57,320 bases of DNA, from NCBI RefSeq assembly GCF_000787775.1, contig NZ_BBPM01000006.1:74939-132258 (forward strand), read 5' to 3'. The notes under the pieces are model-generated. The model was not told where the DNA came from and ran no database searches. It saw nothing but the letters and a program-made list of their open reading frames with translations. This DNA comes from Streptacidiphilus carbonis (GTDB lineage Bacteria > Actinomycetota > Actinomycetes > Streptomycetales > Streptomycetaceae). Shown here one piece after another: positions 21,295 to 23,681 of the stretch (the stretch's first letter is position 1; each line of letters starts with the position of its first letter). The position numbers and the translations under genes were made by a program.

Positions 21295-22020
21295 ATGCGC
21301 CGCACCACGACCGCCGCACTGCTGGCACTCGGGCTCACCACCGCACTGGCAGCACCCGCCTCCGCCCACGCCGCACCCGCCGTCCGCCACCTCGACCACC
21401 GCCTGGTCCGGCACGCGGGCGCGAACGACAACTGGGGCGGCTACGCCGTCACCGGCGGCACGTACCGCACCGTCACCGGCGACTGGACCGTGCCCGCACT
21501 GGACTGCTCGGCCACGGCCGGCGACATATCCTTCTGGTCCGGCCTCGACGGCTGGACCAGCACCAGCGTCGAACAGATCGGCCTCGACGCGGTCTGCACC
21601 CGCAAGGGAGCCGTGCAGTACAACCCGTGGGTCGAGATGTACCCGGCGAACTCGATCTACTTCACCGAGACCGTCAAGGCCGGGGACGCCATGACCTCCT
21701 CGGTGACCACCAACGGCAGCGGCAGCTTCACCCTGACACTGGCCGACCCCACCCAGGGCTGGACCAAGACCTACACCAAGACCCTCACCGGCGCGCCGCT
21801 CAGCTCCGCCGAGGTGATCGTCGAGGCCATCGGCAGCCAGACCATCCCGCCCTGCCCCGACTTCCACCAGGTCCGGTTCACCGACGTCACCGCCAACGGC
21901 CAGGCCTTCGGCTCCGCGGGTACCGTCAGCACCACCAACCTGGAGCGCAACGGCGTGCTGCTCACCCAGGACGGCACACTGACCGGCACCGCCTTCCCCG
22001 TGACCTGGCTGCACACCTGA
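21295..22020 (+). CDS. Secreted glutamic endopeptidase (peptidase family G1)
   Basis: A 241-residue exported protease. A signal peptide covers about residues 1-27 (RRTT, then LLALGLTTALAAPASAHA). The mature part carries the G1 features: NWGGYAVTGGTYRTVTGDWTVP, FWSGLDGWTSTSVEQIGLD with the catalytic Gln at 94, WVEMYPANSIYF and SSAEVIVEAIG containing the partner Glu (E173 or E177). C71 and C101 could pair. G1 enzymes are acid-active and best known in fungi, with bacterial members mostly uncharacterised. GGGGG-type ribosome site before the ATG. Monocistronic; a scavenging role is likely. Confidence 0.85.
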   Translation: MRRTTTAALLALGLTTALAAPASAHAAPAVRHLDHRLVRHAGANDNWGGYAVTGGTYRTVTGDWTVPALDCSATAGDISFWSGLDGWTSTSVEQIGLDAVCTRKGAVQYNPWVEMYPANSIYFTETVKAGDAMTSSVTTNGSGSFTLTLADPTQGWTKTYTKTLTGAPLSSAEVIVEAIGSQTIPPCPDFHQVRFTDVTANGQAFGSAGTVSTTNLERNGVLLTQDGTLTGTAFPVTWLHT

Positions 22021-22062
22021 CCCTGCGGGGGCGGACCCGTCCGCGGGCGCGCGACGATCGTG

Positions 22063-22109
22063 CGTCAATTACGGATTGACGATTAGGGGTCGTCAATCTA
22101 CGATTGACG
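22063..22109 (+). promoter_or_regulatory. Twin palindromes embedded in a leaderless promoter
   Basis: CGTCAAT-N5-ATTGACG occurs twice, at 22063-22081 and 22091-22109, with perfect 7-bp arms and centres 28 bp apart. The same DNA holds TTGACG (22076-22081), 17 nt and TACGAT (22099-22104), a near-ideal promoter. One palindrome ends in the -35, the other contains the -10. The predicted start point is at about 22111, the first base of the ATG, and there is no Shine-Dalgarno, so the mRNA appears leaderless and under tight repression. Confidence 0.7.
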
Positions 22110-22110
22110 C

Positions 22111-22812
22111 ATGAGCCCACTCAACATCAACCTCGCGGACCTGATCGCCCGTCTCGCCGAGGAACTGCCCGACGCCGACGACCTGGCCCGTATCACCGAG
22201 GCGCAACTGCGCGCCCAGACCCTGTCCGACCTCGGCGACCAGCTCGTCGGCCACTACGTCGGCAAGGCCAAGCAGGCCGGCGCGTCGTGGAGCGAGATCG
22301 GCGACGCCATCGGAGTGTCCAAGCAGGCCGCCCAGCAACGCCACACGCCCGCCCCGTTCGATCGGTACACCGACCTGAACCGGCACAGCATCGTGCTGGC
22401 GCAGGAGGCCGCCCGGACCCACAGGCACGACTTCATCGGCACCGAGCACATGCTGCTCGGCCTGCTCGGCGAACCGCGGGGCCTGGCATACGAGGTGCTG
22501 CTGGCGAAGACCGAGTCGGAGCAGCGCATCCGCGACGCGGTCGAGGAAGCGCTGCCACCGGCCAAGAAGAAGGCACCGCGGGGTCACATCGCGTTCCGAG
22601 CGGACGGCAAGGAGGCTATCGAGCAGGCCCTGCGCGCGTCCGCCGACCTCGGCCACGACTGGGTCGGCACGGAGCACTCGCTGCTCGGCCTGATCCGGGT
22701 CGAGGACAGCCCGGCCGCGCAGATCCTGCGCAACCTCGGCTTCACCGCGGAGGAACTGCACGAGACGGTCCGGGCCGAGGCCCCCGACCGGTTCACCGAG
22801 CGGAACCAGTAG
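22111..22812 (+). CDS. Clp N-domain (ClpR repeat) protein with N-terminal helix-turn-helix
   Basis: A 233-residue cytosolic protein. Residues 1-80 hold helices with an HTH-like ASWSEIGDAIGVSKQAAQQRH (about 58-78). Residues ~85-147 and ~156-225 are two Clp_N repeats (IVLAQEAARTHRHDFIGTEHMLLGLLGE and EQALRASADLGHDWVGTEHSLLGLIR are the paired cores), as found at the N-terminus of ClpA/ClpC, but there is no AAA+ ATPase domain. The protein could bind Clp substrates or adaptors, or act as a DNA-binding sensor coupled to protein quality control. The twin palindromes at its promoter suggest autoregulation by its own HTH. No direct function is known to me. Confidence 0.85.
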   Translation: MSPLNINLADLIARLAEELPDADDLARITEAQLRAQTLSDLGDQLVGHYVGKAKQAGASWSEIGDAIGVSKQAAQQRHTPAPFDRYTDLNRHSIVLAQEAARTHRHDFIGTEHMLLGLLGEPRGLAYEVLLAKTESEQRIRDAVEEALPPAKKKAPRGHIAFRADGKEAIEQALRASADLGHDWVGTEHSLLGLIRVEDSPAAQILRNLGFTAEELHETVRAEAPDRFTERNQ

Positions 22813-22840
22813 CAGGGAGCCAGGAGCAACGGCAAGACAG

Positions 22841-22874
22841 GTGGACCCCGCACCCGCACGGATGCGGGGCCCAC
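22841..22874 (+). terminator. Stem-loop after the Clp_N gene
   Basis: GTGG-A-CCCCGCA (22841-22852) pairs with TGCGGGG-C-CCAC (22863-22874), an 11-bp stem with one mismatch and a 10-nt loop, 29 nt past the stop. It separates the Clp_N gene from the two-component operon. Confidence 0.55.
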
Positions 22875-22985
22875 CGGCGAGCGCTCCGTACGGCCGTGCG
22901 GTCCGGCGTCGGCGACCACCACGTACCGTGCCGTAAGCGCTTTTCGATACGCCGACGATATGCGCCGACTCGTAGCATCGGGAGC

Positions 22986-23681
22986 ATGCGTGTGCTGATC
23001 GTCGAGGACGAGCCCTACCTGGCCGAAGCCATCCGCGACGGCCTGCGCCTGGAGGCGATCGCGGCCGACATCGCGGGCGACGGCGACACCGCGCTGGAAC
23101 TGCTGGACGTCAACAGCTACGACATCGCCGTCCTGGACCGGGACGTCCCCGGGCCCTCCGGTGACGAGATCGCCCGACACATCGTCGCCTCCGGCAGCGG
23201 CATGCCGATCCTCATGCTCACCGCCGCCGACCGTCTCGACGACAAGGCGTCCGGTTTCGAACTCGGCGCCGACGACTACCTCACCAAACCCTTCGAACTC
23301 CGAGAACTCGGGCTCAGGCTCCGAGCCCTCGACCGCAGGCGCGCCCACAGCAGGCCTCCCGTGCTGGAGACCGCAGGCCTGCGGCTGGACCCGTTCCGCA
23401 GAGAGGTCTACCGGGACGGCCGCTTCGTCGCGCTGACCCGGAAGCAGTTCGCCGTGCTCGAAGTCCTGCTGGCCGCCGACGGCGGTGTCGTCAGCGCCGA
23501 GGAACTCCTGGAACGCGCCTGGGACGAGAACGCCGACCCGTTCACCAACGCCGTGCGCATCACGGTCTCGGCACTGCGCAAGCGTCTCGGCGAGCCCTGG
23601 ACCATCGCCACCGTGCCGGGCGTCGGCTACCGCATCGACCGCCGTCCGGGATCCGGGCCCGAGGGAGGAGAGCGTGGATAG
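22986..23681 (+). CDS. OmpR-family response regulator
   Basis: A 231-residue regulator: receiver domain at 1-115 with acidic pocket E7-D8, phospho-acceptor D51 in DIAVLDRDVPGPSG and K101 in YLTKPFE, then a winged-helix DNA-binding domain (about 130-225, LTRKQFAVLEVLLAADGGVVSAEELLERAW and VRITVSALRKRLG). It overlaps the following sensor kinase gene by 8 nt, so the pair is translated together. GGGAGC before the ATG. Direct repeats (GATACGCCGAC, GATATGCGCCGAC) at 22946-22970 are possible self-binding sites. The output is probably the VanJ-like gene downstream. Confidence 0.93.
   Translation: MRVLIVEDEPYLAEAIRDGLRLEAIAADIAGDGDTALELLDVNSYDIAVLDRDVPGPSGDEIARHIVASGSGMPILMLTAADRLDDKASGFELGADDYLTKPFELRELGLRLRALDRRRAHSRPPVLETAGLRLDPFRREVYRDGRFVALTRKQFAVLEVLLAADGGVVSAEELLERAWDENADPFTNAVRITVSALRKRLGEPWTIATVPGVGYRIDRRPGSGPEGGERG

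What the first reader, a model, noticed from the sequence alone, without database searches (positions are those of the whole stretch)
22063..22812. Leaderless Clp_N/HTH gene behind twin identical palindromes
Two perfect CGTCAAT-N5-ATTGACG palindromes are built into a TTGACG-N17-TACGAT promoter, one at the -35, one over the -10, and the predicted start point coincides with the ATG; no Shine-Dalgarno exists. The product joins an HTH-like segment to two Clp_N repeats without an ATPase. A stand-alone Clp substrate-recognition module that appears to control its own leaderless transcript would be a new kind of proteolysis sensor: binding of damaged protein or ClpC partner could release DNA.
Basis: partly seen in the sequence, partly recalled or inferred. 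Interest (0 to 1): 0.8.

Follow-up and report, generated by a model that had tools for sequence, protein, structure and literature searches.

The report
Self-repressing decoy of a Clp chaperone
This actinomycete gene encodes a DNA-binding protein fused to a copy of the antibiotic-binding front end of the Clp protease machine, and it most likely shuts off its own leaderless gene until a Clp-directed compound or misfolded protein pulls it away; that kind of switch is already published for mycobacterial ClpC2, and what is added here is a divergent branch of it and a clue to which part reads the DNA.

Summary
Two perfect CGTCAAT-N5-ATTGACG palindromes (22063-22081, 22091-22109) lie in a TTGACG-N17-TACGAT promoter. 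The predicted start is the ATG at 22111, without a Shine-Dalgarno. The 233-aa product is a helix-turn-helix (HTH) domain plus a double Clp_N domain, without an ATPase.

The proposed "new kind" is not new. Mycobacterial ClpC2 is a published, putatively leaderless autorepressor with the same doubled operator (CGTCAAC-n5-GTTGACG), released by cyclomarin A (PMC10030653).

The window gene belongs to a divergent ClpC2-like branch. In 57 of 59 genes read (window included) both palindromes sit at fixed positions. The window genome (inferred Streptacidiphilus) also holds a second ClpC2-type gene and a split HTH/Clp_N pair, each with its own variant operator.

New evidence bears on an open mechanistic point. 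Residue 71, in the HTH recognition helix, covaries with the outermost operator base: Lys with C/G, Arg with T/A. It is the top column of 245 scored; 19 of 20 independent contrasts agree, one tie. The proposed DNA-contact arginine R189 is acidic or Ala in all 60 branch genes examined. So the HTH, absent from the truncated crystal structure, probably reads the operator. Three HTH-only genes of another genus are exceptions. Repression and ligand are inferred, not shown.

The parts
22063..22081 (+). distal operator palindrome CGTCAAT-TACGG-ATTGACG, its right half being the -35 element
   Evidence: exact match; CGTCAA-N7-TTGACG at -48/-49 in 58 of 59 genes
22091..22109 (+). proximal operator palindrome CGTCAAT-CTACG-ATTGACG, overlapping the -10 element
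   Evidence: exact match; CGTCAA-N7-TTGACG at -20/-21 in 58 of 59 genes
22076..22081 (+). -35 hexamer TTGACG
   Evidence: only promoter-like hit in 21900-23100
22099..22104 (+). -10 hexamer TACGAT; T-12, A-11 and T-7 conserved although T-12 and A-11 lie in the palindrome's spacer
22111..22812 (+). ClpC2-like gene, 233 aa: HTH domain plus Clp_N double repeat, no ATPase; predicted leaderless, start point at the A of ATG
22132..22275 (+). N-terminal helices 8-18 and 24-55 (dimerisation region by homology; D43/K54 equal the D46-R57 salt bridge of ClpC2)
   Evidence: AlphaFold2 N-terminal model pLDDT 90.9; phmmer to 8ADA E 1.3e-9; residue table
22288..22344 (+). helix-turn-helix, helices 60-67 and 71-78
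22321..22323 (+). codon of Lys71, the residue that covaries with the outermost operator base
22399..22554 (+). Clp_N repeat 1
22630..22773 (+). Clp_N repeat 2
22357..22359 (+). Phe83, equivalent of ClpC1 F2 / ClpC2 F96 (cyclomarin contact); F162 and E171 match F80 and E89
   Evidence: alignment; F83 60/60, F162 60/60, E171 41/60 in this branch

Best explanation
The gene is a ClpC2-type autorepressor and decoy. A dimer of the 233-aa protein binds the two palindromes through the HTH of its N-terminal domain (Lys71 at the start of the recognition helix reading the outer C:G pair of each half-site), covers the -35 and -10 elements and keeps its own leaderless transcript low. When the Clp_N double repeat, a copy of the ClpC1 N-terminal domain, binds a ClpC1-directed compound (cyclomarin-like cyclic peptides being the known case) or an unfolded client, the DNA is released, the protein is made in bulk and soaks up the ligand, sparing ClpC1. 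Shown here: anatomy, operator conservation and geometry, residue-71/operator covariation, conserved ligand residues. Taken from the literature for the mycobacterial relative: autorepression, release by cyclomarin, sponge effect. Inferred: that this protein does the same, and which ligand it senses.
For: Doubled palindrome at fixed positions before 57 of 59 genes read. In the genus of the window 12 of 14 genomes have one double operator; 11 of the 12 precede an intact 229-237 aa HTH-Clp_N gene whose ATG follows the palindrome by 1 nt (the window's own copy L099). In 396 genomes sampled across the phylum 18 double operators were found in 16 genomes; 16 of the 18 lie before HTH-Clp_N genes. Same operator form and position as published for ClpC2. 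Sequence match to the ClpC2 N-terminal crystal chain 8ADA (1.3e-9) and to ClpC1/ClpC2 Clp_N structures. Residue 71 holds 0.774 bits about operator type against 0.331 for the next of 245 columns, after leaving out loci chosen by their operator. In ClpC2-type genes Lys goes with C/G in 252 of 264 outer positions and Arg with T/A in 208 of 284. 19 of 20 independent contrasts agree, 1 tie (20 of 21 with all loci); it is the best of 171 columns tested the same way, two-sided p 3.8e-6, next 0.0018 at residue 70 beside it. Later set: 20 Arg genes and 1 Lys gene follow the rule in 74 of 80 and 4 of 4 outer positions (counted by hand from the rows; at least 3 of these 21 genes were already in the first set).
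Against: No expression or binding data for this protein. R185A/R189A in ClpC2 weakened DNA binding, which the HTH model must explain indirectly; the R185 equivalent is kept in 53 of 60 branch genes. Exceptions to the code: 11 of 71 Arg ClpC2-type genes have C/G-leaning (6) or mixed (5) operators, and the three intact HTH-only genes read in another genus (L316, L324, L332) have Arg with C/G operators; those loci were fetched with a pattern that demands C/G at two of the four outer positions, so T/A cases there could not be seen. The solved homologue 8ADA is not among the 50 rows shown of the Foldseek or VIA lists for the N-terminal model, so the modelled helix packing is not confirmed. Ecumicin and ilamycin bind ClpC2 but do not induce it (passages of PMC12913811), so ligand binding alone need not derepress.
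Confidence: 0.78

Rival explanations
1. DNA is read by the Clp_N domain, through the helix with R185/R189 as Taylor et al. propose for ClpC2; the N-terminal domain only dimerises.
For: R185A/R189A weakens DNA binding, and the matching double mutant raises expression 2.0-fold, in the published work. The R185 equivalent is kept in 53 of 60 branch genes.
Against: The R189 equivalent is Asp, Glu or Ala in 60 of 60 genes of this branch, which keep the same kind of operator. Residue 179 gives 3 informative contrasts (p 0.25) and residue 175 varied too little to enter the test, so neither is shown to track operator type, while residue 71 of the HTH does. The crystal chain ends at the equivalent of residue 69, before the recognition helix. 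In the paper gel shifts with the dimer-deficient variant and the C-terminal domain alone supported the need for the dimer for high-affinity binding, which fits an N-terminal reader too.
Confidence: 0.12
2. The physiological signal is unfolded or aggregated protein, not an antibiotic: a heat or proteotoxic stress holdase that makes itself when clients pull it off DNA.
For: About twofold heat induction and casein binding of ClpC2; restated in PMC12913811 (passages).
Against: Heat induction is weak next to 263-fold by cyclomarin; cyclomarin-contact residues F83 and F162 are invariant in 60 of 60 genes of this branch, though E171 is kept in only 41 of 60.
Confidence: 0.3
3. The palindromes belong to another regulator (one of the two paralogous systems in the genome or an unrelated repressor), and the Clp_N protein is only a target.
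For: Three HTH/Clp_N systems with related operators exist in this genome.
Against: The other two have Arg at position 71 and mostly T/A outer bases; the exact operator lies nowhere else in the genome and travels with this gene; 25 of 46 genomes with this gene gave no ClpC2-type match at E 1e-20.
Confidence: 0.06

Closest known systems
ClpC2 of mycobacteria (Rv2667 family; Taylor et al. 2023, PMC10030653)
   Same: HTH-like dimerising N-terminal domain plus ClpC1-NTD-like C-terminal domain, no ATPase; doubled CGTCAA-n7-TTGACG operator over -35 and -10; putative leaderless start 1-2 nt downstream; cyclomarin contacts kept
   Different: 38% identity to the ClpC2-type protein of its own genome; R189 replaced by Asp; a ClpC2-type gene is found beside it in 21 of 46 genomes tested; half-site CAAT/ATTG rather than CAAC/GTTG in the window; function not tested
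ClpC3, a second small Clp protein of mycobacteria (named in a review, PMC10864484, passages)
   Same: said there to share the ligand-binding site of ClpC1
   Different: not compared here; its sequence and promoter were not examined
N-terminal domain of ClpC1/ClpC (PDB 3WDB, 6CN8 and others)
   Same: Clp_N double repeat, phmmer 3.3e-29
   Different: no AAA+ modules here; a DNA-binding domain instead
RelI antitoxin, Rv2664 (PDB 9SDC; PMC13284704, passages read)
   Same: HTH domain similar in sequence to this N-terminal domain (E 2.8e-4); that paper already notes an HTH region shared with ClpC2
   Different: toxin partner, no Clp_N in the 84-residue chain; no doubled leaderless operator mentioned in the passages seen
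Streptomyces ClpC2 ATPase (PMC9765437, passages read)
   Same: name only
   Different: called a Clp-ATPase that works with ClpP there; not this protein

Membership tests
ClpC2-type autorepressor/decoy | ClpC1-NTD-like Clp_N double repeat without ATPase | tested here: met
   two Clp_N stretches, 233 aa
ClpC2-type autorepressor/decoy | N-terminal dimerisation domain of the ClpC2 kind with the D46-R57 salt bridge | tested here: met
   phmmer to 8ADA 1.3e-9; D43 in 59/60, K54 or R in 60/60; dimerisation itself not tested
ClpC2-type autorepressor/decoy | doubled CGTCAA-n7-TTGACG operator over the promoter, 1-2 nt before a leaderless ORF | tested here: met
   the transcript start is predicted, not mapped
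ClpC2-type autorepressor/decoy | cyclomarin-contact residues F96, F172, E181 | tested here: met
   F83, F162, E171 in the window protein
ClpC2-type autorepressor/decoy | proposed DNA-contact arginines R185 and R189 | tested here: not met
   R175 kept in the window protein, D179 in place of R189; at 179 there are 52 D, 5 E, 3 A among 60 genes. Treated as a proposed, not an established, defining feature
ClpC2-type autorepressor/decoy | represses its own promoter and is released by a ClpC1 ligand | not testable with these tools
   needs binding and expression assays
Fis-like fold for the N-terminal domain | significant structural match over the domain | tested here: inconclusive

The most novel reading that the evidence does not exclude
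Actinomycetes carry a modular family of leaderless, doubly operated autorepressors whose HTH is the DNA reader and whose residue 71 (Lys or Arg) tunes it to a C:G or T:A outer base. Genomes such as this one run several such switches side by side, kept apart by operator letters, each with its own sensor (Clp_N fused, Clp_N split off, or, elsewhere, an HTH-only gene beside a monooxygenase and a PEP-utiliser-type domain), so that each answers a different antibiotic or stress.
Probability: 0.35. Interest if true: 0.68.

Novelty: new variant of a known kind. Interest (0 to 1): 0.47.

Why it matters
ClpC1 is an antibiotic target, and ClpC2 blunts a drug against it. A second, divergent decoy branch with its own operator widens where such inducible protection may be found among actinomycetes, a group known (recalled) for peptide antibiotics. 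The residue-71 rule gives a direct, cheap test of which domain of ClpC2 reads DNA, a point on which the published model rests on a truncated crystal structure and one double mutant, and it offers a way to predict operators from protein sequence.

Tried and rejected
Chance palindromes: rejected. A wider regulon in the window genome: none seen; two-mismatch sites only moderately exceed the reversed control (116 against 78), and I did not read the neighbours of the 8 one-mismatch sites listed. An operon or conserved neighbourhood: the upstream peptidase A4/G1 gene and the downstream response regulator each matched (tblastn, 1e-10) in 0 of 60 related loci, 58 of which hold full 3 kb flanks (in one search the regulator query and another were cut wrongly and are not used). 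Sigma-like or Fis-like identity of the N-terminal domain: only weak structural matches; 8ADA is not among the rows shown.

Rows dropped: L065 (N-terminus and operator not homologous) and L073 (no operator) from the 59- and 212-gene counts; L075-L080 as distant matches; three HTH-only genes under 150 aa (L004, L078, L079) from the covariation count; 15 genes of the range L087-L104, fetched because of their operators, from the final statistics. Alignment A1 holds 31 of the 61 close sequences. The covariation set came from protein-similarity hits: the 30 ranked loci each, 25 further hits and 60 further hits, besides the loci; it is not a random sample. The tree was built without window residues 55-82. 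Hoi et al., Cell 2023 is not held, so whether it discusses the ClpC2 HTH is unknown to me. Searches for ClpC2 with cyclomarin, Streptomyces/repressor, helix-turn-helix, operator/autorepress and Streptomyces/Clp, and for Clp_N with leaderless, showed no title or abstract start about residue 71 or this branch; I judged from the listings, and searches listed only 15 of 34 and 8 of 157 papers.

Full report
WHAT IS THERE. The pattern is not chance: 0 mismatches twice, against 0.79 expected sites with up to 3 mismatches, and no other exact GTCAAY-N5-RTTGAC in 8.46 Mb. TTGACG-N17-TACGAT is the sole sigma-70-like hit in 1.2 kb. Counting the A of ATG as the start point, the -35 hexamer ends at -30 and the -10 hexamer lies at -12 to -7, the textbook positions. 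The bases T-12 and A-11 lie in the otherwise variable spacer of the proximal palindrome yet are conserved in 58 of 59 genes, which argues for a real -10 element and a leaderless start.

RELATIVES. A pattern-based scan of the species-genome collection, which finds close relatives only, gave 66 related loci. Of the 60 close ones, 58 plus the window gene were read: 57 of 59 have both CGTCAA-N7-TTGACG palindromes at -20/-21 and -48/-49, and the other two have one each intact; no Shine-Dalgarno-like 4-mer in 59 of 59. They come from Streptomyces, Streptacidiphilus, Kitasatospora, Actinacidiphila, Microbispora, Actinomadura, Actinoallomurus, Yinghuangia and others. The two neighbouring genes tested are not shared (0 of 60 loci for either), so this looks like a stand-alone unit. 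The window genome's genus is inferred to be Streptacidiphilus: a genome called same genus (G655) shows the same match place and score as the genome of L043, S. jeojiense (G900). In that genus 12 of 14 genomes have one double operator, 11 of them before an intact HTH-Clp_N gene of this kind (229-237 aa); the twelfth is before a ClpC2-type gene whose frame is broken. Across 396 sampled genomes of the phylum, 16 of 18 double operators lie before HTH-Clp_N genes and the other two beside a monooxygenase gene.

WHAT IS KNOWN. Taylor et al. 2023 (PMC10030653; Results and Discussion read) describe this architecture for mycobacterial ClpC2: CGTCAAC-n5-GTTGACG one to two nucleotides before the ORF, repeated upstream in many of the actinobacteria they looked at, overlapping -35 and -10, putatively leaderless; ClpC2 represses itself, cyclomarin A binds its Clp_N domain and lifts repression, and the protein then sequesters the drug. 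The mechanism class is therefore published. Their crystal structure covers residues 4-72; the chain aligns to window residues 20-69 and stops before the recognition helix, which begins at 71, and they placed DNA binding on a Clp_N-domain helix with R185 and R189. A 2026 paper notes by profile search that ClpC2 has an HTH region shared with the RelI antitoxin (PMC13284704, passages).

WHICH PART READS DNA. AlphaFold2 gives a confident N-terminal domain (pLDDT 90.9) with helices 60-67 and 71-78 as an HTH (71-76 in the full-length model). I read upstream regions of 217 distinct HTH genes and kept 212 HTH-Clp_N genes with both palindromes at up to 2 mismatches. Among protein columns, residue 71 is by far the best predictor of the outermost operator base: Lys with C...G, Arg with T...A. 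After leaving out the 15 genes fetched by their operator, 197 remain (60 of this branch, 137 ClpC2-type). In the ClpC2-type set Lys genes have C/G in 252 of 264 outer positions (3 T/A, 9 other) and Arg genes T/A in 208 of 284 (47 C/G, 29 other); the information is 0.774 bits against 0.331 for the next of 245 columns. On a tree built without the HTH columns, parsimony counts 21 changes of residue 71. Of 20 independent contrasts 19 point the same way with one tie (20 of 21 with all loci), and among 171 columns tested alike residue 71 leads with two-sided p 3.8e-6; residues 70, 144 and 80 follow with 0.0018, 0.021 and 0.039, which do not stand after correction for 171 columns. In the window's own branch 59 of 60 genes have Lys, with C/G in 235 of 236 outer positions; the one Arg gene (L028) has one T/A of four. 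The R189 equivalent is D, E or A in 60 of 60 genes of the branch although their operators are of the published form; the R185 equivalent is kept in 53. Counter-evidence: 6 Arg ClpC2-type genes have C/G-leaning operators and 5 are mixed; three intact HTH-only genes of another genus combine Arg with C/G, in loci fetched with a C/G-demanding pattern; and the published R185A/R189A mutant did weaken binding.

SEVERAL SWITCHES IN ONE GENOME. Beyond the window gene the genome has Clp_N matches at five places: three in open frames of 867-936 codons, taken to be full Clp ATPases, and two in short ones. One of the latter is a ClpC2-type gene 125 kb downstream on the same contig (38% identical to the window protein), with Arg at position 71 and the operator TGACAAC-N5-GTTGACA / TGTCAAC-N5-GTTGTCA directly before its ATG. 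The other is a split pair: a 79-aa HTH gene (Arg) with TGTCAA-N6-TTGACG / TGTCAA-N6-TTGACA before its ATG, then a separate Clp_N gene. Of 46 genomes carrying the window's type, 21 also carry a ClpC2-type gene, 20 of these with Arg and mostly T/A operators, one (Microbispora oryzae) with Lys and C/G. This fits insulation between paralogues but could be lineage history.

MECHANISM. Most likely: a dimer on both operators blocks RNA polymerase; a Clp_N ligand releases it; the leaderless transcript rises; the protein acts as decoy for ClpC1. The ligand contacts F83, F162 and E171 match ClpC1 F2, F80 and E89. Binding, repression, start site and ligand remain to be measured for this protein. A contact of Arg with the G of a TpG step and of Lys with the G of a CpG step would be one chemical reading of the rule; that is recalled knowledge, not tested.

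VERDICT. Observation confirmed, mechanism class already published, gene a member of a divergent ClpC2-like branch; the residue-71 rule is the new, testable part.

Noticed in passing
L097/L105, L103, and 14 of the 48 loci L274-L301 and L313-L332 (unnamed genus of G235): In this genus a further ClpC2-type double operator lies beside an FAD-dependent monooxygenase gene. Of the 48 loci classified, 28 have an HTH-Clp_N gene behind the operator, 14 the monooxygenase, 2 only a PEP-utiliser mobile-domain gene, 1 only an HTH-only gene and 3 none of these. On the other side of some monooxygenase sites lies a short HTH-only gene (88-90 aa, predicted leaderless, related to the ClpC2 N-terminal domain) or a PEP-utiliser gene. 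It suggests that the HTH module also controls non-Clp genes, perhaps detoxifying ones.
   Followed up: partly
G000 contig C57, L004/L106: Split version of the system: a 79-aa HTH gene with a double operator of N6 spacing, followed by a separate Clp_N gene; 74-aa HTH-only genes of similar kind stand at the start of the matched regions of L078 and L079 (their Clp_N parts were not read).
   Followed up: partly
G000 contig C134 about 221.8-222.6 kb, L009/L010: Canonical ClpC2-type paralogue in the same genome, with Arg at position 71 and a T/A operator.
   Followed up: yes
L065 (Microbispora bryophytorum) and L111 (G507): Copies in which the first 30 residues and the operator are not recognisable (match begins at residue 30 or 31); natural loss of the promoter and N-terminus.
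   Followed up: no
L312 (G712), L315 (G989): Genes behind double operators whose reading frames appear broken (ClpC2-type in L312, HTH-only in L315); described only.
   Followed up: no
PDB 9SDC: The RelI antitoxin shares the HTH domain, so the domain occurs in toxin-antitoxin systems too (also noted in PMC13284704).
   Followed up: partly
window 21295-22020 and 22986-23681: Flanking genes: a peptidase A4 family protein upstream and a response regulator with a Trans_reg_C domain downstream; the next ORF looks like a histidine kinase (read by eye). Neither tested neighbour travels with the ClpC2-like gene.
   Followed up: yes
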